64,000 bases of DNA from Chrysoperla carnea (lineage: Eukaryota > Arthropoda > Insecta > Neuroptera > Chrysopidae). The notes below the pieces were generated by a model. The model saw only the letters and a list, made by a program, of their open reading frames with translations, was not told the origin of the DNA and did not search any database. The stretch spans positions 77,511,435 to 77,575,434 of the forward strand of contig NC_058338.1 in NCBI RefSeq assembly GCF_905475395.1. The letters are read 5' to 3'. Shown in pieces: positions 7,286-58,957 of this stretch (positions within the stretch are counted from its first letter, which is position 1; every line of letters begins with the position of its first letter). The position numbers were made by a program, and so were the translations under genes.

Positions 7286-10200
7286 TTACTTGGAATGTTG
7301 CATTTTTAAATTATGCTCCACTAATTCTAACAACAATGGCATTTGAAAATAATTCGCAATTATATGAAATGTTTTCAAATATAAAACTAAATCATTCCAG
7401 CTAATTAATGTTTTATAATCACCGGCACAAGAACAATGCTTTGGTATATTTTCCATTTTTATCTGAAAAATAAAAACACTTTAAAATTGAGTTCTTTATT
7501 GGGGAATTGTTGCTTTTATTTACCTGTTTACATCTGGTACATTGTAAATCTTGTAAGATATACGCCATAGCTTTACGATTTAAGCAATCGATTAGCATGC
7601 TTTCTATTTCTACGTTATCGTAGCTATTCTTACATAATGGACACAACCAGGACGCTCTGAAAAATATTTATTATGCTTAATTATTGCAAACATGTATTAT
7701 TCACAGAAAAAGAAATGCAAATTTAGAATGAAATTTGGGTGGGGGGGGGGGTGAGTGTTGTTTTCGTAGGTGGGTTTAACTCATGTAATTCTTTATAGAT
7801 CAAGTTTTTTTGCTCTCCTAGTCCAACTGTTAGTCCATTTCTGTTTGCCCGTCCGTCCGTACCTCTGCTAGGCGATAGCTCAAAAAAGAGACATCCAATT
7901 TTTAGCTTGCTCAGGGCGTAAAAAAGTGTGAGTTTGTATTCATAAATGAACAACATAGGTCAATTGGGTCTTTCTTGTAAACCGTTAGAGATAAAAAAAA
8001 AAGTACAAAAGTTAAAAATAATCTTATGAAAAAATAAACAACTTTTGTCTGGATTATTTTCTAGCCAACTTACTCATCGTTCTCCATAGTACGAAAACTG
8101 TCTTTACATAAATCAATATCACGACAGTGATTGCATGCTTTACAAATGACTTCAGGTAATGTAAACGAAATACAAGGTTCTTTCCATTCAGCGTCGTCAC
8201 TAAACGCTCCAATTTTAATTAATTTTAACATATTTTTTCGTAAATCCATTACTTCAACTTCAATGCTTGGATCTAATGATAAAATTTTACAAATTGCTTT
8301 AATAAATTCTAATGCCGGATTTATTAAACCACCCGATTGAGCAGCAAATGATAATTCAGAAGCTGCTTTGCATGTAGGTAATCGACGGTGTATTTGTTCC
8401 ACAATTCTATAAAAAGAGAAAAAAAAAATCTATACTAATGATATAAATATGAATTATATATTTATTTGTATATTTGGTTATTTGTTTTTGTTTCTTTTAC
8501 GTGTTTCTTTTATTGTATTAAATATGTATACATGTCCACTGAGGAAGTGAAAAGAAAGATTCTATAAGTACTTTGTGTGTAAGAGTGACTATCTTTCTTT
8601 ACTTACTTGACGTAAAAAAAGAAACGATTGCGTAATCAACCCTGTCTTTACATGGTATTTCAACAATTAATTCAGTCAATTGTTCGTTTTCACTTGTTTC
8701 TATTAATTTCAAAACTTTTTAAGTATACTTACTGAAATAATTTTTGGGATAATTCTCCAGTAATTAAATTTTTAGCAAATTCGGAAGCGTTTTTATGTGC
8801 ACCTAAACCCAGTTGAGGCCGGTATGAACTTTGACTAGTAGATGGTCTACGTCTGACTGGAGTTTGTGTCAAAGCTCGATCAGGATCACTCCACATATAT
8901 TCATATACAGCATTTATATATGCAGCAATTACATTACTAAAACTTGAACGACATTTAACTTCTTCTGGTAAATATTCAGCTAAATTCCAATTCATTACGA
9001 TTACGGCCTACAAATAAAAACTAGATTAATTGATCGTACATAAAAACTATATTAATTGAACTCTTATTAAAGTGGTTCGGCTGTTTGAACAAGAACGGTT
9101 AATTTAACTCCTATTAAAGTGGTTCGGCTGTTTGAACAAGTACGGTGAATGTTCATTTTTTTTGCGGTAAATGCAAAGTCCCTTGATCACAATAAACGCA
9201 GTTTCGGGGCCTCTTGTGGGGCGAAATTTTGAATTATTTCATTTTAAACTTTTGATTTTTAACATAGTACCTTATGGAAGAACTCACAATAATGTTAATT
9301 GTACAAATATTATCGGCGAATGAGCTTCAAAAAAGTTTTTATCATGAAGAAAATTTACCACATATTTTGTTTATGCAAAAAAAAATCACATTACCTTACG
9401 GCGCTTTCAAAGAAGAAGACATAAAAAAATTTTGTTTTTGACGCTTTTTCGATATTTTTAGAGCATTTTCTTACATTTACGTCATACAAATTGCCTAGTT
9501 CAGCGTGCCTAGTCACGTGACAGCCGAATCACTTTAAGTATGATTTAATTAAGTCGTAGCCAAACGAACTTGAGATGGCTTTCATTTGAATCATTTTGCT
9601 CGATAAAATATTTTTCGAGTAATTGATTTGTGTTGTCAAGTTAAAACAAGTATTCAATAAATTCGGCTAAGTTTTAAATGCCAGAGAGTTTGATTGAGTT
9701 TTTAATTTGAAAATTTTTACCCCGTCATCATCATCGTCATCTTCACCTAGTTCAGATTGATCATCTCGTGGCGCCTGTTCATTATTTTCATCCATATTCG
9801 ATAAACTAATTTTATTTTCCTCTTCACCAGCAGCATTCAAACCGGTCGGTAACTTCCCTCGTACTCCACCATGATTTGCCAAATCTAACCACATTAAGTA
9901 CTCCCAGCATTGATTGTATGATATTTCAATACTATGAAATAATTCAGTATTACGAATATTTTGTACCACATATTCCACATAACTTATAGCATCCGTTACG
10001 GATTTTTTTTTGGTACATAATATGATTTTGTTAAAATTTGCAAAAATTATAATTGCACCTAAACGTTTAAATTCTGCGACTAATTGTATAAACAATTTTT
10101 TCATTAAATTATGTAATGTTTTACGCAATGCTGGATCGTACAATAAGGCATTTGGTGAACGTAGCCATCTGAAAGAATTCAAAAATATTTTCAAGCATGA

Positions 10201-24279: not shown

Positions 24280-26666
24280 TGTTTAATATAATTAATTTTC
24301 AACTTGAGCCTTATTATACTTTTATTCGATGACCATTTTGATTATAAAATGATTAAATAAATCACCATAGACATTCTGAATACTATGTTATTCGTCAATA
24401 ATTAGAAGTTTAGGGAGATTTATTTAAATCAAAATGATTAGGCCAATGAATACAACTTTGTCAAAAAGTGATTAAAAATTAAAATAGTATCTACCTTTGG
24501 TTGTAAGATATTGAATTGAATTTTTGTATATTTTTATTGTTAAATAAAGAAATAATTATTTTAATCGGGGTGGTTTCATTTATTTACCTCTATTAGATTA
24601 GAGCTTTAAATTTGGAAGCATTTATTTAAGGCATCATGGATAAGAAATTTTGTAAGTAAGGTTTTTACAACGCACTACCAGGTAAAGTTCAGCTCAAAAT
24701 AAGTCAATTTAGCAAAACATACTTTATTATAAAGTTGTTCAATATGCTAAACAATCCCGAATTCGAAATTACACAGTTATAACAGTCGCAAAAAATTCAT
24801 ATAAAAATTATGATTAATATAAATTCATTGGCGTATAATGTGGGAAATTTAAAGGAAATAAAGGATTTTGAGTATGATATTTATATGTAACTTATATTCT
24901 TCAAAAAAGGTATCTCCTTGTCTGATTTACTCTAGTTCAATTGTTCCAGATATTCATTAAATTTAAGAATATTGATTGAAATAACAATTACTTTTTCCCT
25001 AATAATAAGTAAATAAATTATTGATGCGCAGACATCCATATAACTCAATTTTGATAATATTAAGACAGTCAACTGTGAAATGAAATATATCAAGGTAGAC
25101 TAAGTTTAGCCCCAAAATTGTAACGCTTAAAAATATTGATGCTACGAACAAAATTTTGGTATTCGAACCGTGCGTGAGTATTATTGGAGGCGTTTCCATG
25201 GTAACGATACACTACTTTAATTATAGAACTGTATGGATGCATATATAATTGTATGGATTGCATTTATGACTTACATTGAAAATTTAATATTATTATCTAA
25301 CAAATTTAAATAAATAATTACGATAATTTACATTTGAAAAATAATATTTGTGCAATTTGATTTCTTATTTTCACAATTTTTAATGCATTAAGTTTATAAT
25401 TAGTGTTTTTCAATAATTTTTATTTGACATTTTATACCATAAACATGTAAAGAATTGCAAATTAGTCATAACAGTCTACTTTATCGCCAAAATTTTTCGC
25501 TGGCATCAATTTAATTGTCCCTACCATGACTACGCACACAACGTATAGGTGTTCTTATGATTTTATAATCACTTAATTAGTCCATTTTAGGTTGTATGTC
25601 TGTCTGTCCGTCTGACAACACGATCACTCAAAAACAAAAAAGTTATCAAGTTGAAATTTTTACAGCGTGCTCAGGACGTAAAAAGTGAGGTCTAGTTCGT
25701 AAATGAGCAACATGGGTCAATTGTGTCTTGAGTTCGTAGGACCCATCTATCTTGTAAACCGTTAGAGATACAACACAAGTTTAAATTTAAGAAATGTTAC
25801 TTATAAAAAAATTTACAACTTTTGCTCGAAACATTTGTTCGAAAACATCACAATAATATATATCCCGTGAGGGTGCAAATTATATAATATGTATGTACCT
25901 ATTATATGGGAATATCAATTACATGTGTGTGTGTGATATGTATGTATGTGTGGCTATCTTTCTCTACTTACATGATGTACAAAAACAAACGATTGCTTCA
26001 TCAACACTGTCTATACATGGTATTTAAACAATTAACTCAGCCAATTGTTTGTTTTCACTTGTTTTTATTTTCGTTTTAATCAGAGACTATATCAGTAAAT
26101 ATATTCTCTGGTTTTTATGGAGCTCATTAAAACAAAAACTTCGGAGCTCATTAAAATCTAGACCAGCTCAAATCTTAACAATAATGAACCCCGACTGTTA
26201 ACTTTTTTTCAGATTTTATTTAACACAGTCGAGTTTTTGTAATTTTTTCTTTCATAATCTGGCAGTTATATAATCTTTACAAGCAAACATATAATAGTAC
26301 CTTTCTTAGACTGTATATGTTCTCTCTCATACTCATGGATGTAGCATGCGAAATGATTCAAACGAATTAATATACTGTTTATACTAATTGTAAAAAAGGG
26401 AAAAAGGATTTTTAAATATTTAATAAGAACTTATTTTATGTTTTTTCTTATCGTAGATTACATAGAAATTAATATTTTTTTATTTACAAAAATAAAACAA
26501 TCAACTGTGATTTAAATTAATATTCTTTACAAATTAATAAATAAATACATTTATGAGTTAATTTAATATATTATGCAAAACTCAGTAAAATAAGTTTTTT
26601 GGAAGAATTTTCTTCATAAGACTTTCTTTTTTTTCGAATTTCCATGTACCTACACAAAATAATAAT
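24280..26666. other. Intergenic spacer with one repeat copy
   Basis: It holds 3' flanks of two converging genes. Apart from the repeat at 25079-26075 I see only AT-rich sequence and no coding frame worth listing. Confidence 0.5.
25079..26075 (+). repeat. 550-bp repeat family, copy with internal insertion
   Basis: The head (caaggtagactaagttta, gtaacgcttaaaaatattga, acaaaattttggtat) lies at 25090-25170. The body resumes near 25540 with gtataggtgttcttat, tgtctgtctgtccgtctg and the rest of the family up to gttttcacttg at about 26060. Roughly 350 bp of foreign AT-rich sequence separates the two, so something inserted into this copy. Confidence 0.7.
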
Positions 26667-31044: not shown

Positions 31045-31572
31045 TACCATGTACCCAAATTTGTAACGCTTAGAAATATTGATAATAAAAACAAAATTTT
31101 GGTATAGGTAAAATAAAATCACTTCATTAGTCCAGTTCCGGTTGTCTATGTTTATCTGTCTGTCTGTCCGCCTGTAAACACGATAACTCAAAAACGAAAA
31201 GAGATATTAAGCTGAATATTTTTATTGCGTTCTTAGGTGCAAAAAGTGAGGCCGAGTTCGTAAATGAGCAACATAAGTCAATTGGAACTTGGATCCGTAG
31301 GACTCATCTTGAAAACCGTTAGAAATATAACAAAACTATAAATGTAAAAAATGTTCTTTATAAAAAAAATAAACAATTAGGCTCAAATTATATAGTACGT
31401 GTTACATGGGAATATCAGTGTGTGTGACAGCTATGTATGTGCAGCTATCTAAGAGTGGCTATCTTTTCTACTTACATGACATAAGAAAACAAACGATTGC
31501 GTAATCAACACTGTCTAGGCATGGTATTTCAACAATTAACTCAGTCAATTGTTTGTTTTCACTTGCTTTATA
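31045..31572 (+). repeat. 550-bp repeat family, near-complete copy
   Basis: It runs from tataccatgtacccaa through gtaacgcttagaaatattga, gtctgtctgtccgcctg, aaaaagtgaggccgagttcg, catgacataagaaaac and tggtatttcaacaatta to gttttcacttg. It is the best copy for defining the family's ends on the plus strand. Confidence 0.8.
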
Positions 31573-31811
31573 TAACAGATAATTAAGAGCCGTTACAAAA
31601 AGGTACTATGAACTTTTCAGTGGATCTTCGATTTCTTGAAATAAACATGAAAATCTAGTAAATTTCAGAGGTATCGATTGAAAAAATGACGCCAGGATAT
31701 AACAGCTCTCGCATTCGATTTTAGTCTTTACCTCTGAAACTACTCGTATAATTGTTAAACGAGCCTTGGGCAATTTTCTCAAGATACCCCTTCGAGATAA
31801 TCGAAAGACGA

Positions 31812-51838: not shown

Positions 51839-52837
51839 AATTTATACACAATACCTTAATTGTACTATACTTTAAAAAAAATTTTAATAAACGATTTTTT
51901 TTAGTAAATTCCACGTCCTTGTCTATTTGCCTATTTTTAAATTAATATGAGTAATAGCGTACAGTATAATGACATACAATTAGTTCGTTTCTGTTTTTAT
52001 AAAATTTTATAAATGTTCATATTACGGCAGAAATCAGAAATCAACTAAACCTTCTGAAGAATGCAATCTCGAGAAAACCTTTTAAAGATTTTACCTTTCG
52101 ATACTTTTTTCTTACATTATGGCCTGTGTTATTCATACATAATCGTATGAATTAAACTTAAAACAAGTGAAAATAAGCAACTGATTGAGTTAATTGTTGA
52201 AATACCATGCATAGACAGTGTTGATTACTCTGTATTATTAAAATATTAAAATTCAATAATACATATTATACAATTTACGCCTAATTTGCGCCCTCACGGG
52301 TAAACAGTGATGTTTACGAAAAAATGTTTCAAACAAAAGTTGTTTATTTTTTGATAAGGAAGATTTTTTACATTTAAACTTTTGTTCTATCTCTAACGGT
52401 GGGTACAAGATGGGTCCTACGGACCCATTGGTCAAGACCCAATTGACCTATGTTGCTCATTTACGAACTTGACCTCACTTTTTACGTCCTGAGTACGCTG
52501 TAAAAATTTCAGCTTGATATCTTTTATCGTTTTTGAGTTATCGTGTTGACAGACAGACGGACAGACAACCGAAAATATATAAACACCTATATCAAAATTT
52601 TGTTCTTAGCATTAATATTTTTAAGCGTTACAAACTTGGGACTAAACTTAGTATACCTTGCATATTACATATATGCATGGTATAATAATTGAAAATAAAT
52701 TTCTTGAGTTTAACTGATCTCTAACTTTATGAACGCACCCTTATGTCAAAATTAAATTTGTCAAATTATTTGATCAATAAATAAACAAACTTCATTTAAA
52801 ACCATAAACTGTGTTTATAATATAAAACTATTTAAAT
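51839..52837. other. Spacer between ZAD genes B and C
   Basis: About half is an inverted copy of the 550-bp repeat family (next entry). The last 100 bases (ttatgtcaaaatt, aataaacaaacttcat) resemble the sequence just upstream of gene D, supporting a shared ancestral promoter for C and D. Confidence 0.55.
52150..52690 (-). repeat. 550-bp repeat family, inverted copy
   Basis: Reading the minus strand it runs from tataccatgcatatatgtaa through gtaacgcttaaaaatatt, gtctgtccgtctgtctgtc, aaaaagtgaggtcaagttcg, gtgagggcgcaaatta and tggtatttcaacaatta to ttttcacttgttttaag. Nearly complete, lacking the 'tggctatctttct' segment. It is the only copy in this orientation in the window. Confidence 0.8.
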
Positions 52838-55800
52838 ATGAGTACTTATTTACAATGTAGACTTTGTGCTGAGTGGAAAGTTGCAAACGAATTAATAAAT
52901 ATTAACCATGAGAAAGCTATTCAAATAAAATTAGTAACAAAAATTCAACAATGTTTAAATTTGAATTTTGATAACCTAAAATTACCCGAAAATGTTTGTT
53001 TATTATGCTGCGATAAAGTAGGATCTACTTATGATTTTCAAGAACTTGTAAAGAAAGCTCAACAAAAATTATTCGATGCAATTGAAGAGAAAATAGTATA
53101 TATTAAAACAGAAATACCAGATCCAGAAGACGAGTGGTATCAAACAACATTGAATAATCATAATGCTAACGAAGAGAAAAAAGTAAATTTTAAAACTGAA
53201 TTACCAGAGGTAGAAAATGTGTGGTATCAACATGTTGAAACAACATTGAATGAACACGTTGCAAACAAAGAAAAATTACTAAAGAGTAAAACTGAATTAC
53301 CAGAATCAGAAAATGAATGGTATCAAGATGTGGATACAACATTGAATGATTATGGTCCAAATGAAGATAAATTAGTAAATTTTAAAACTGAACCAGAACC
53401 ACAAAATGAGTGGTATCAACAGGTTGAAACAACATTGAATGATTATGACGATGATATCGTAAAGGAAGAAGGTTTGGATATTACTATTTTGTCATATCCT
53501 TATACCAGTTTTATTAAAATTATCCCCGTCATTATTTGTGGAATTTATGAGGAACGAAATAGTCCCAAATTAAAGTCGGAAAAAAAGGTTTTTTTTCCCG
53601 ACTTTTAAAAATTTTTTGCAGATTTGGGCTTTGGTAGAAAAAAAAGTTGGGAAAATTAAAATGAGCATTCTATATTTTCCAGTCCTTATTATTAGTTAGA
53701 GAGATGTACATATGATTTACTGATGGTCATGGTAACCGTCTGCTGAGCCTGAAATATGGTAGTAGGCAATGTTCCAAGTCGCCCTGTAAGGTTCCTCGAA
53801 TTTCTATGTGTCATATTCCCCCCCAGGGGGAGATTTGAAAAACTGTCACTAAGTTAAGGTTCTGGAAACTGTCTGCTTGTTTGATAATTCATTAGATGTG
53901 ATTCTGAACAGTCATCTTGCAAAGTTTGAGCTCAACAAGTTGTCCCACTTGTTGAGCTCAAACATTCCCGAATTATGCCAAAAAAACCGAAAATGTCGTT
54001 ACGCGGTAAAAAAATTTGAAGTGATGGTTCTGGAAACTGTAAAACTGGTTTGGTTATGTTGAGGATGTCAAAAGGATCAGAAAAATATGTTTGGCAGAAA
54101 AGCAAGTGGCCAGGGATTTTTTTGGCAGCACTTTGAAAAACGCAAATTATTCCCTGGGGGGGGGATGACACATAGAAATTTGAGGAACCTTACAGGGCGA
54201 CTCGGAACATTACCTACTATCATATTTAAGGCTCAGCAGACGGTTGCCATGACCATCAGTAAATCATATATACATCTCTCTAACTATATTTAGTAACACT
54301 AAAATTAACGTTGCACTTATTTATTATTTTTGAATTTGTTTAATATTTCATAGTTTATTTTTAGTGAAAGTTGGAGAAAATTCAGAAGTTGAGAGAGAAA
54401 TTCAAGTTTCTACACCAAAAACTGTAAGTCACACTTAATTTAAATAGATACAGCCTGATTCAAGAATTTTTTCAATTTAAATAAAATTTCCTTACAGTTT
54501 TTGATATTTACGAGGCAGCAATTGTCTCAAGACCAGAGTTTCCAGAAAATTTTCTATCAAGTAGCATTATCTGTGATAAAAAAGAGCCTAATGTAGTACT
54601 CAAAGCGCCTCATTAACTTCAACCAATACTAATATGTTACAATGGCACGCAAATTTTTGTAGCACAAGCACTTTTTAAAGTAACTCATTCATATAATAGT
54701 CTAAGATCCCAATTAGGATCGACCTTCACCCATCTGTTTACCGGATGAAAGTTATTTTTTATGAAATATAAAATGTTAACAAATATCCCTGCAATAGGTT
54801 GCCTATAAAAATGTGGTCCAGACTACTTTTAGTGAAAATATCAAGAGTAAAATTTTTAGAAATTTTTCACTGACTTGCATATCTTACGAATTTTGATCTA
54901 CTCGAAAGTAAAAGCCATAAAGAATATGCAGCAGCTATGTTGTTTGCCTTTTTTCGTTCACTATTATCGCATTTATACAAGTTGAAAATAGTAATTACGT
55001 GCATCTGTTAATTCATTGACTCGCATATCTAAATAAAGATAATTTTGTTACAATTACGGTGGCATATGATTGGCCACAAAATATTGGTCAAAAATAATGT
55101 TTACAAGCTTTCCAAGTTTTGATATTTATATTAAAAATGGTCTGGACCATATTTTTTAAGGCAACCCGTTACAGGAATATTTGTTAATATTTTACATTTC
55201 ATAAAAAATAACTTTCATTCGGTAAACAGATGGGTGAAGGTCGACCCTAATTCGGATCTTGTACTATAAAAAAATAGAGCAATTTGGGAAAAGTAGTACA
55301 ATCTAGCAACCCTGATCAAGACGAATTTGATTTACCAGAGTGAAAGTAGCCTAAAGTAGACGAAAGAGATGTTATCATTATGGCTATCTAGGGAGGTAAT
55401 AGTCAGTGTTGCCAGATAGACTTATCCACTTGCCCCTATATCGCCTAAACGACCACTTAAAATCCCCTAGATTAAAACCAGATGCCCTAAATTAAATGAC
55501 TTTGAAATTATCATACTTTTTAATAAGTTTTTATACCATGTTTATATGAAATATATTAAGGTATACTAAGTTTTGTACCATGTGCGTAACGCTCAAAAAT
55601 ATTTATGCTACGAGCAAAATTTTTAGGTGTTCATAAAATCCATTTCCGGTTGTCCATTCGTTTGAATGTCCATTCGTCCACACGACAACACAATAAATCC
55701 AAAAAGGAAAAAAGATATCAAGCTGAAATTTGTTTAGCGTGCTCGGACGTAAAAAGTGAGGTTGAGTTCGTATATGAGCAACATAGATCAATTATGTTTT

Positions 55801-57873
55801 GAGTCCGTAGGACACATCTTCTAAACCGTTAGAGATAGAACAAATGTTCAAATGTAAAAAATGTTCATTAAAAAAAAATAAACAACTTTTGTTTAAAACA
55901 TTTTTTTGTAAACATCACTGTTTACCCACGAAGGCGCAAATTATGTAGTATATATTATATGAGCCATGTGTATGTGACATGTATGTATAAGTGGCTCTCT
56001 AAAAATGGCTATCTTTCTTTACTTACATGAAGTAAAAAGGCAAAAAATTGCGTAATCAACATTGTCTATGCATGGTATTTCAACAATTAACTCAGTCAAT
56101 TGTTTGTTTTCACTTGTTTTATATATAATTTCTGTTTGGAACTTAAATCGTAATCAACATAATCTATACATGGTATTTCCCCTAGATTTTCCACCAAACT
56201 TTTTAAAATTCATTAAAAGGGCAACACTGGTGATAGTTGTATTCCTTGACCACAAGCATGTGTGTTAAGATCTCAAATTTGCCATTTTAAGTCATTTAGA
56301 AACCGAACTATTAATAATGTATTTCAAAATGGTCGCTATAAAATCAATGCTATATCAAAGGTTTACTCTTATAAAAAATTAAAATCTTGGTAGCTGGTTA
56401 TTTCCTGGTAAATATTTATTATTTTTACCCAGGGCTTCACATAAATATACGAAATTCGACAATACTTTACCCCAATAACCGAATAATACATTATGTTTTT
56501 TTTTTTGTCTTTTGCTGTAGGTTCGTGTCCGACGTAGAAATTGTGAGAAAAAAAGAATACCCATTGACCCTGAATCAATGAAATTAGCAGTTCAAGCTGT
56601 TACTGGACCGAATAAAGTATCAATGAGAGAAGCTGCTAGAATTTTTAATGTCAAATTCTCTACACTTTTACGTCATGTTAATTTGTTCAAGGCATCTGGT
56701 GCAACTGACTTTGAATATAAGGCTAGCTATGATGTCAAGAAGGTCTTTACGGAAGAAGAAGAACTAAAACTAATAGAGTATGTAAAAACCATCACTAAAA
56801 TGAATAAGGGTCTCACAAAAAAACAGCTTCGTGAAGTAGCCTATCAGTTTGCTGTCACAAACAAAAAAAGATACCCCTCTTCTTGGGATATATTTAAACT
56901 TGCAGGAGAAGAATGGATGAGATTATTTTTGAAAAGACATTCCGACGATGGTGACCTAACCATCAACCTGTTACCTACAGCCAGTTTTTATAAAACAACT
57001 TTAGCTAAATTTTTTGATAATTTGAATGACGTACATAAACGCTTTGGACCGTTCCCACCTCAAAGAATTTGGACACAAAATGAAATCGCCGTGACTACGG
57101 AGCAAGATCCTTCAACAGTTATCTCAGTTAAAAAGTTTGGTGACATGACGCTAACAGAAACTGAGCATCTAATAATTATATCCGCTTGTTCCAATGCTTT
57201 AGGAAATCTAATACCTCCCATGATGCTGTTCCCTAGTGCTCATTATAAAGATTACATGATAAAGGGAGCACCCCCAGGTACAATCGGTGAAGCTAACTTT
57301 TCGGGCGGTTTGAACGAAGAGTTGTTTTATAAATTTATGGAGCATTTTATAAAACACACTAAACCTTCAAAAGAAGAACGTGTCATCCTTATAACTGATA
57401 ACGATGAAACTCATCTTGCACCAAAAACCTTAGACTTAGCGTCTAATGCTGGGGTGGTGTTCGTAACTTTCCCACCTCAAATTTCTCACAAATTACAACC
57501 ACTGAATATCTCTGTCTTTCTTGCGTTCAAGCTGTATTATGACCTAGCAGTTCAATCGTGGCTTGTCAAAAATCCTGGAAAAAAAGTTGGCGTTTATAAT
57601 GTTGCCGAGTGCGTTGGAAAAGCTTACCCAAAAGCTTTTACTACTGACAGAATAACTAGTGGCTTTGAAAAAGCAGGAATTTATCCTCTAGACAAAGCAA
57701 TACCTAAAGATAATGAGATTGGGGAGGATAACACGTCATCTTCAAAGAGGAAGAAAAAAAGCTCACTACAAGAAAATGTTTCAAAACCTTCAACGAGCAC
57801 GTCTTCACCAGAGAGCTATTTTCAAAATAAAAAAATTAAACTAGAATATGACAATTTGGGTATTCTAAAATAA
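52838..57873 (+). CDS. ZAD gene C: predicted ZAD-pogo transposase fusion, 681 aa
   Basis: Exons 52838-53471 and 54365-54423 match exons 1-2 of gene D in sequence and phase (ZAD: CRLCAEW ... [13 protein letters not shown]). The linker after the ZAD is expanded to four repeats of about 30 residues containing KTE and EWYQ. No C2H2 exons follow. Instead a pyrimidine-rich acceptor at 56520 opens a phase-0 exon, 56521-57873, that continues the frame: psq HTH (VSMREAARIFNVKFSTLLRH), CENP-B-type HTH (FTEEEELKLIEYVK, EEWMRLFLKRH), then a DDE domain. Total 2,046 nt, no internal stop. An in-frame stop directly before the exon and the lack of an ATG until 56578 favour splicing from upstream. Alternatives are a ZAD-only product ending at 54596, an independent transposase starting at 56578, or splicing of C exon 2 into gene D exon 3, which is also phase 0. 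Confidence 0.6.
53694..54286. mobile_element. MITE with arms of about 135 bp, in gene C intron 1
   Basis: tagttagagagatgta at the left is mirrored at the right by tacatctctctaacta. The arms, including accgtctgctgagcct and gccctgtaaggttcctc, are about 95 percent identical by eye. The interior holds a second perfect palindrome with 16-base arms, 53925-53940 and 53947-53962 (tttgagctcaacaagt). No transposase. It adds about 590 bp to the intron. Confidence 0.85.
54690..55270. mobile_element. MITE with arms of about 140 bp, in gene C intron 2
   Basis: The left arm starts at 54696 (atagtctaagatcc) and includes cgaccttcacccatctgttt and ggttgcc...tggtccagac. The right arm is the inverted copy ending at 55267 (ggatcttgtactat). 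About 570 bp, with no open frame. Confidence 0.85.
55404..56229. mobile_element. MITE with cagtgttgcc ends, carrying a nested repeat
   Basis: The left end cagtgttgcca (55404) is mirrored by ggcaacactg at 56220-56229. Inside both ends are matching phrases (cccctagatt). The middle, 55535-56130, is a full plus-strand copy of the 550-bp repeat family, so that repeat inserted into the MITE. The MITE lies about 290 bp before the transposase exon of gene C. Confidence 0.7.
55535..56130 (+). repeat. 550-bp repeat family, nested copy
   Basis: It runs from ttttataccatgtttatatg through gtaacgctcaaaaatattta, aaaaagtgaggttgagttcg, tttacccacgaaggcgcaaa and tggtatttcaacaatta to gttttcacttgttttata. The target on either side is the MITE at 55404-56229. 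Confidence 0.8.
56521..57873 (+). mobile_element. Pogo/Tigger-like transposase-derived coding exon
   Basis: A 450-codon open frame. Order of domains: basic stretch RVRRRNCEKKR, psq-type HTH, CENP-B-type HTH (about residues 52-121 counted from the Met at 56578), then DDE domain. In the family the catalytic residues sit in N.DE, LDNH.SH and LQPLD; here they are TQNE (Asn 168), ITDNDETH (Asp 274 kept) and LQPLN (Asn 310). The usual S-ERG loop is also changed (LTETEH). The fold-defining phrases NALGNLIPPMMLFP and TFPPQISHKLQPL are well kept. So the protein should fold and bind DNA but not cut it. A Lys-rich stretch near residue 390 (KRKKK) looks like a nuclear signal. I found no terminal inverted repeats that would make it a mobile unit. 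Confidence 0.88.
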
Positions 57874-57899
57874 TCATAATAAGCACAGAAAAATAATAA

Positions 57900-58034
57900 T
57901 TCGAGAGAAAAAAATCCTTAAATGTCAAAGACAAAAATAAGAATAAAAGAGGTTTGTTAGATTATAACAGTGAATCTGAAAATGAAGAAGTGAATTTAAT
58001 CTGTTATAAGCCAGGAACGAAAATCAAGTTTTAA
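57900..58034 (+). pseudogene. Possible displaced transposase C-terminal tail
   Basis: Just after the transposase stop an open stretch in another frame (+2) reads KSLNVKDKNKNKRGLLD, then YNSESENEEVNLICY and a stop at 58032-58034. An acidic Ser/Glu-rich tail near a Cys is common at the end of pogo-like transposases, so this may be the old C-terminus put out of frame, or a small separate exon. Weak evidence. Confidence 0.3.
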
Positions 58035-58148
58035 TTTTAAAAGCCAGGTATTTTAAGAGAAAAGGTATGTGTTTAGGGCCAGGAACTATACGAAAATCAT
58101 GTTTTAATTTTAAAAGACAGGTTTTTTAAGGAAAGAGGTAATGTTTTG
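58011..58148. repeat. 68-bp tandem duplication
   Basis: Two adjacent copies start at 58011 and 58079: ccaggaac..acgaaaatca, gttttaattttaaaag, caggt.ttttaag. Several substitutions separate them. It overlaps the end of the displaced tail. Confidence 0.75.
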
Positions 58149-58957
58149 TTATGATTTAGCAACAAGAAGGGACCACCAGTGGAATAGATAGGAAAAATTA
58201 TTGTTGATTCAAAGATCAATACGATTTTGAATATCAGATTCATTTTACTAACTGTGAACTGCCAGGAAATTTATAAAGAAATCCGAAGAAATATTTAATA
58301 TTTTAGTGAAAAATAAATGTGATAAACTGCCAAACAAAGTTAATTACGTGTATCGATTGCGACTGATGAACAGTTGTGATTCTATATTTTATAGTTTTAA
58401 CCGTAAATTAATTCTTTTTGTAATGAAAAAAGTAAATAAAAATTGTTATTTAAAAATGTTGTTTTTAATTTGTTCTGCCTTTTGTTGAAGTGAGCGCTCG
58501 GTATAACTCAGATAGTACTAACAACCCATGCATCTTGAGAAAGAACAGATTGTCGATATATGGGGTGTCAGCCTCGATACTAACTGAGAAATTGTGATGT
58601 AAGTGTAAGAAGATTCTGTGGACATATTAAACTTGTTCAGCATAAATAGTCGGTTTAATACGCATACACTGCTATACGAAAGCGCGGTTTTTCTACGTTT
58701 TATAAAACAGCAAACGCGCTAATTTTTTGGTAAACGCAAAATATTTGATGCTCATCCACATAAAAGCGAATGTACATTACCTTTATTTAACCTTGATCGT
58801 AAACTACCGCCATTATAATTTTTTTAAATCTTTTGTTTTTAGCATTTGTGAAGACATCATAAATCGAAATCTTCTGAACGCTCCCTAGTTCTTATGTCAA
58901 AATTGAATAAACAAACTTCATCACTGTCAAGTTGATAGTTGACTGTCAATTTGAAGT

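What the first reader, a model, noticed from the sequence alone, without database searches (positions are those of the whole stretch)
52838..57873. Candidate host-transposase fusion: ZAD domain spliced to a pogo-like transposase
Seen: ZAD exon ends in phase 1, linker exon of 59 nt restores phase 0, and the transposase exon starts at a strong acceptor in phase 0, giving one 681-codon frame. The zinc-finger exons present in all three sister genes are absent. Known: transposase capture by splicing to a host domain has made transcription factors in vertebrates (for example with KRAB). Inference: here an arthropod dimerisation domain gained a new DNA-binding module in place of its C2H2 array. I know of no described ZAD-pogo fusion, but I cannot search.
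Basis: partly seen in the sequence, partly recalled or inferred. Interest (0 to 1): 0.88.

Follow-up and report, generated by a model that had tools for sequence, protein, structure and literature searches.

The report
ZAD domain fused to dead transposase
In a cluster of insect-type gene-regulator genes, one copy seems to have swapped its DNA-reading zinc fingers for a disabled jumping-gene protein, which would be a natural route to a new regulator, although no RNA evidence was available to prove the two halves are joined.

Summary
Exon 1 (52838-53471), exon 2 (54365-54423) and a 1353-nt exon (56521-57873) give one 681-codon frame with zf-AD, HTH_psq, a sub-threshold HTH_Tnp_Tc5 and DDE_1. The intron phases are those of sisters B and D. 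The acceptor at 56520 scores highest of 28 eligible AGs (184 in all) under an ad hoc score. No zinc-finger remnant and no transposon ends above chance were found. New here: the transposase keeps 450 open codons although two of three catalytic aspartates (positions assigned by recalled pogo motifs) are asparagine (N187, D293, N329; 35-residue spacing). Likeliest reading: a host-transposase fusion, ZAD joined by splicing to a catalytically dead pogo transposase, a counterpart of vertebrate POGK (KRAB plus pogo; PMC7386202). Not shown: a transcript, orthologues, or selection on the transposase. The test on this gene's own ZAD branch is inconclusive (3 silent, 7 replacement). Ten open-access literature searches, read as capped listings, showed no ZAD-pogo fusion. 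Verdict: real gene structure, probable domesticated fusion, new variant of a known kind.

The parts
52838..53471 (+). Exon 1: ZAD domain plus a linker expanded by extra in-frame [13 protein letters not shown]-type modules (634 nt, ends in phase 1)
   Evidence: homologous to exon 1 of sisters A, B, D
53472..54364 (+). Intron 1, holding a MITE-like inverted-repeat element at 53654-54325
   Evidence: donor AAG|GTTTGG as in sisters A and B, GTTTGC in D
54365..54423 (+). Exon 2: 59-nt linker exon, ends in phase 0
   Evidence: matches sister D exon 2 up to about 54390
54424..56520 (+). Intron 2, holding a MITE-like element (54696-55267) and a copy of a window-repeated element (about 55500-56180); no detectable zinc-finger remnant
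56521..57873 (+). Exon 3: pogo-like transposase, 450 codons, HTH_psq + HTH_Tnp_Tc5-like + DDE_1; putative catalytic triad N187/D293/N329
58312..58317 (+). Possible poly(A) signal AATAAA for the fusion gene (others at 57942 and 58435)
   Evidence: pattern match only, such hexamers also occur in introns 1 and 2

Best explanation
Gene C of a tandem ZAD zinc-finger cluster lacks zinc-finger exons and uses a pogo-superfamily transposase copy as its last exon. Shown by sequence: the exon anatomy, inherited phases, an intact joint frame, a putatively lost catalytic triad and no recognisable transposon ends. Inferred: the native exon 2 donor (54424) is spliced to an acceptor at 56520 just upstream of the former transposase N-terminus, so the ZAD promoter drives a 681-aa protein. 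ZAD would give dimerisation (recalled property of the domain), the psq-type HTH and the second CENP-B-like HTH would give sequence-specific DNA binding, probably to pogo-type ends spread in the genome, and the dead DDE domain would act only as a scaffold. The protein would thus work as a DNA-binding regulator or silencer, in the way proposed for vertebrate fusions such as POGK.
For: Joint 681-codon frame with domains. Phase-0 intron 2 shared with sisters B and D. Acceptor 56520 is rank 1 of 28 eligible (184 AGs) and the only eligible one that opens the whole 450-codon frame; 56826 opens the last 348 codons of it. An in-frame TAG directly precedes exon 3 and its first in-frame ATG is codon 20, so the first 19 residues, open though they are, would need the splice to be translated. 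Two of three catalytic positions are Asn with 35-residue spacing, like the partly lost triads of domesticated pogo proteins in PMC7386202 Table 1. No transposon ends above chance: TA-flanked best 13 of 18, and 20 of 20 controls reached 13-15. Exon length differences to sister D are multiples of 3 (279 and 18 nt). No zinc fingers detectable, so the ZAD exon has no other recognised C-terminal module in the interval. ZAD core C versus D omega 0.276, bootstrap 0.076-0.868. Under a neutral simulation with assumed indel rates the exon 3 frame stays intact in 0.8% of 2000 runs at 3% divergence and in 0 of 2000 at 6.5%.
Against: No transcript, orthologue or dN/dS for the transposase. On gene C's own branch the ZAD core shows 3 silent and 7 replacement changes against 3 and 2 on D's branch, 4 ambiguous: compatible with relaxed constraint. 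Exon 3 has higher GC3 (0.291) than C exon 1 (0.175) or D exon 1 (0.161), which suggests a recent arrival. The ATG at codon 20 of exon 3 (56578) would let the transposase be made on its own. A T-rich inverted pair, 56491-56512 and 57927-57948, 18 of 22, brackets exon 3; 3 of 25 simulations did as well and it has no TA flanks, but it is not excluded as worn transposon ends. The age of the capture is unknown, so frame survival by youth is not excluded. The catalytic positions rest on recalled pogo motifs plus spacing; the AlphaFold model was poor (mean pLDDT 41).
Confidence: 0.6

Rival explanations
1. Chance neighbourhood: a pogo element inserted downstream of a truncated ZAD duplicate. The two are not spliced together; the ZAD gene makes a short ZAD-only protein or nothing, and the transposase is a recent inactive copy whose frame has simply not decayed yet.
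For: Higher GC3 of exon 3, relaxed-looking ZAD branch, ATG at codon 20 of exon 3, introns holding repeats, poly(A)-like hexamers before exon 3, a T-rich inverted pair bracketing exon 3. At 1% neutral divergence the frame survives in 19.7% of simulations.
Against: No TA-flanked inverted ends above chance, although a young insertion should show them; the bracketing T-rich pair is reached by 3 of 25 simulations; two putative catalytic substitutions; a strong acceptor at the exact start of the frame in the inherited phase; no second copy of the transposase in the 64 kb window.
Confidence: 0.25
2. Unstable chimera: the splice is used, but the fusion is a recent, non-functional allele or pseudogene without a selected role.
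For: C branch of ZAD with 3 silent and 7 replacement changes; composition of exon 3 not matched to its host gene.
Against: ZAD match, linker frame and transposase frame are all intact; length changes against sister D keep the frame.
Confidence: 0.15

Closest known systems
POGK (KRAB plus Passer-type pogo transposase, vertebrates)
   Same: Host regulatory N-terminal domain fused to an entire pogo transposase; catalytic triad partly lost (DN35D) with 35-residue spacing (PMC7386202 sections 9 and 10 read).
   Different: KRAB instead of ZAD; BrkDBD/HTH_Tnp_Tc5 instead of HTH_psq/HTH_Tnp_Tc5 (the latter pair is reported there for Fot and Fot-like transposases, passage); distributed and conserved in mammals, with Ka/Ks 0.062.
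POGZ and CENP-B (domesticated pogo fusions)
   Same: Entire pogo transposase joined to additional functional domains.
   Different: Zinc fingers or a C-terminal dimerisation domain; no ZAD.
ZAD-ZNF transcription factors of insects
   Same: ZAD exon, exon 2 and intron phases of the same tandem cluster.
   Different: C2H2 array replaced by a transposase. ZAD proteins without C2H2 exist in Drosophila (dlip, dbr and three others, PMC7655104 section 5); the word transposase does not occur in that paper's text.
KRABINER and other host-transposase fusions (Cosby et al. 2021)
   Same: Transposase capture onto a host regulatory gene (the paper is not held; described in a passage of PMC12062965; splicing detail recalled).
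   Different: Tetrapod study; KRAB with mariner (recalled), not arthropod ZAD with pogo.

Membership tests
Host-transposase fusion gene | One open frame joins a host domain and a transposase through splice sites in matching phase | tested here: met
   inferred from DNA only
Host-transposase fusion gene | Chimeric transcript observed | not testable with these tools
   No RNA data
Host-transposase fusion gene | Purifying selection and presence in related species | not testable with these tools
   No relatives found in the collections searched
pogo superfamily transposase | N-terminal HTH plus CENP-B-like HTH plus DDE_1 domain | tested here: met
   HTH_psq and DDE_1 above their cut-offs; HTH_Tnp_Tc5 seen but below its cut-off
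pogo superfamily transposase | Intact DDD triad (active element) | tested here: not met
   N187, D293, N329; motif positions recalled
Intact pogo transposon | TIRs and TA target duplication | tested here: not met
   TA-flanked best 13 of 18, equal to controls; without TA, 18 of 22 in a T-rich pair, 3 of 25 simulations as good; ungapped searches only, upstream limit 54424
ZAD-ZNF gene | zf-AD domain | tested here: met
   1.3e-8, 35.4 bits against a cut-off of 28
ZAD-ZNF gene | C-terminal C2H2 array | tested here: not met
   no remnant in 54424-58950

The most novel reading that the evidence does not exclude
A domesticated arthropod silencer or regulator in which a ZAD dimer carries a catalytically dead pogo DNA-binding module to the ends of pogo-family elements: an independent arthropod parallel to KRAB-pogo fusions, with an amplified linker rich in psi-KxE (SUMO-type) motifs as the effector part.
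Probability: 0.3. Interest if true: 0.78.

Novelty: new variant of a known kind. Interest (0 to 1): 0.62.

Why it matters
[quoted passage not shown] That would make transposase capture a general route to new transcription factors rather than a vertebrate habit. The cluster offers ready controls: unfused paralogues lie on either side.

Tried and rejected
Relatives: the search for related loci with the transposase in viral contigs (4 stretches matched a pattern, none confirmed) and in genome contigs (79 stretches, none confirmed); tblastn in plasmids, no match; a recalled LQPLD-type motif as a DNA pattern gave 1 viral and 22 bacterial loci, none a relative (best E 0.32); DDE_1 in one unrelated genome and 14 controls gave nothing (which itself says this does not show absence). 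The phage collection was not searched.

Remnant zinc-finger exon upstream of exon 3: a weak hit at about 56259-56369 (E 0.03) was rejected because 14 of 100 simulated sequences did as well. Transposon ends: the TA-flanked search is at chance; a T-rich inverted pair bracketing exon 3 (I21) reaches 18 of 22, as do 3 of 25 simulations, and lacks TA flanks. Idea that the first residues of exon 3 derive from the sisters' basic exons 3 and 4: protein similarity is weak (5, 9 and 19 of 300 shuffles reach it for B, A and D) and the C versus D DNA comparison (blastn, E up to 1e-3) finds nothing there; rejected, though the B value is suggestive.

Structure: AlphaFold of exon 3 and of its first 180 residues, single sequence, was poor (mean pLDDT 41 and 54) apart from the first HTH; a Foldseek search of the second model gave no match at E <= 0.001, with Pax-6 paired domain, LCoR HTH and CENP-B 1hlv among insignificant rows. 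PDB sequence searches with the transposase found nothing; the ZAD gave only an insignificant match to a Drosophila chain, 7po9, E 0.21. NCBIfam gave a match to IS630 transposase below its cut-off.

Literature: 10 searches of the open-access library; two gave no paper at all, and the others were judged by title and start of abstract, several as capped listings (for example 20 of 5,122 and 15 of 476). None listed is about a ZAD-pogo fusion. Subscription papers and protein databases such as InterPro were not searched. Read: sections 9 and 10 plus passages of PMC7386202; section 5 plus passages of PMC7655104; passages of PMC12062965, PMC10027918, PMC13389597, PMC11837612, PMC11462757 and PMC7325037. 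Not held: PMC4231638, PMC8186458.

Full report
Observation. Gene C of a four-gene tandem ZAD cluster (A from 44910, B from 49070, C from 52838, D from 58958) has exon 1 at 52838-53471, exon 2 at 54365-54423, and then a 1353-nt exon at 56521-57873. The joined frame is 681 codons without an internal stop. Pfam finds zf-AD (1.3e-8), HTH_psq (1.4e-7) and DDE_1 (1.5e-13) above their cut-offs and HTH_Tnp_Tc5 below its own. The first exon of each sister also has zf-AD. The species is not known to me and no whole genome is held; 'insect-type' rests on the ZAD domain and is recalled knowledge.

How surprising is the phase? Exon 1 ends in phase 1 and exon 2 in phase 0 in B and D as well (361+53 and 355+41 are multiples of 3); my model of A does not (385 nt). 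So only the new junction is informative, a 1 in 3 event. Stronger points are the acceptor, rank 1 of 28 eligible AGs (184 AGs in all) under a simple pyrimidine score that I made up for the purpose, and its position: the frame begins exactly at it, with an in-frame TAG just before and the first in-frame ATG of the exon only at codon 20. One other eligible AG (56826) opens 348 codons of the same frame. The exon 2 donor ACT|GTAAGT scores 5 of 7 consensus positions, tied with six others for the best of 174 GTs; the exon 1 donor scores 4, as do the exon 1 donors of A, B and D.

The transposase. The spacing between the second and third catalytic positions is 35 residues (D293 and position 329), and by the recalled pogo motifs (N-x-D-E-T-G and L-Q-P-L-D) positions 187 and 329 should be Asp but are Asn. 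PMC7386202 (sections 9 and 10) reports the same kind of partial loss in domesticated vertebrate pogo genes, for instance DN35D in POGK and DD34N in TIGD7, while JRK, JRKL and POGZ keep theirs. The 450-codon frame is nevertheless open; in simulations without constraint, with assumed indel rates, it survives in 19.7% of 2000 runs at 1% divergence, 0.8% at 3%, and 0 at 6.5%. The intron 2 MITE arms are 87% identical, which would mean about 6% decay per arm if they started identical; but whether that insertion came before or after the transposase is unknown, so this does not date the fusion.

Transposon ends and zinc fingers. Among 23100 TA-flanked pairs of 18-mers around exon 3 the best match was 13 of 18, and 20 of 20 simulated controls reached 13 to 15. 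Without the TA requirement a T-rich pair, 56491-56512 with 57927-57948, brackets exon 3 at 18 of 22; 3 of 25 simulations reached 18 and neither end is next to TA, so I read it as chance, but worn ends are not excluded. It overlaps the T run of the acceptor. No sister zinc-finger sequence is detectable between exon 2 and the next gene (10 of 12 sister regions used as queries). C and D are 83-90% identical in the matched pieces of exon 1, its flanks and the start of exon 2, and blastn finds no match beyond 54390 up to 58900, so the paralogues part in or just after exon 2.

Selection. Over the first 80 ZAD codons the six gene pairs give omega 0.09 to 0.28; C versus D is 0.276 (bootstrap 0.076-0.868). 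Split by outgroup B, C's branch has 3 silent and 7 replacement changes and D's 3 and 2, with 4 ambiguous. That is against a strong claim of constraint on gene C. Exon 3 also has a higher GC3 (0.291) than C exon 1 (0.175), which points to a fairly recent arrival.

Mechanism. I commit to a splice-captured, catalytically dead pogo transposase that gives the ZAD protein a new DNA-binding module. Dimerisation by ZAD is recalled knowledge; DNA binding by the psq-type HTH rests on the family match and a modest model of the first HTH only (block pLDDT 86-88 in its core). Exon 1 of C carries four psi-KxE motifs, all in the expanded linker, against one in A, three in B and three in D, of which two in B and one in D lie in the linker; a SUMO-dependent effector role is speculation.

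Novelty. Host-transposase fusions, including pogo with KRAB, are known; ZAD proteins without zinc fingers are known (PMC7655104). Ten searches of the open-access library, judged by titles and starts of abstracts in partly capped listings, gave no ZAD-pogo fusion. Protein architecture databases were not available, so unannounced examples may exist in them.

Verdict. Observation confirmed; functional fusion gene probable (about 0.60); selected function plausible but unproven; new variant of a known kind.

Noticed in passing
window 55500-56180, 52150-52700, 25080-26068, 31177-31574, 7901-8710: One repeated element with several copies in the window; one lies in intron 2 of gene C and an inverted one just upstream of gene C.
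   Followed up: partly
window 53654-54325 and 54696-55267: Two MITE-like elements with long inverted arms (136 nt at 92.6% and 149 nt at 87%) in introns 1 and 2 of gene C.
   Followed up: partly
window 53080-53470: Exon 1 of gene C is 279 nt longer than that of sister D, through extra in-frame copies of a [20 protein letters not shown] module with psi-KxE motifs.
   Followed up: partly
window about 57930-58034: Past the stop of exon 3 another frame reads KDKNKNKRGLLDYNSESENEEVNLICYKPGTKIKF, possibly the former C-terminal tail of the transposase.
   Followed up: no
window 58017-58147: Two tandem copies of a 73-bp unit about 145 bases after the transposase stop.
   Followed up: no
window 56491-56512 and 57927-57948: A T-rich inverted pair (18 of 22) brackets the transposase exon and overlaps the T run of its acceptor; 3 of 25 simulations do as well.
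   Followed up: yes
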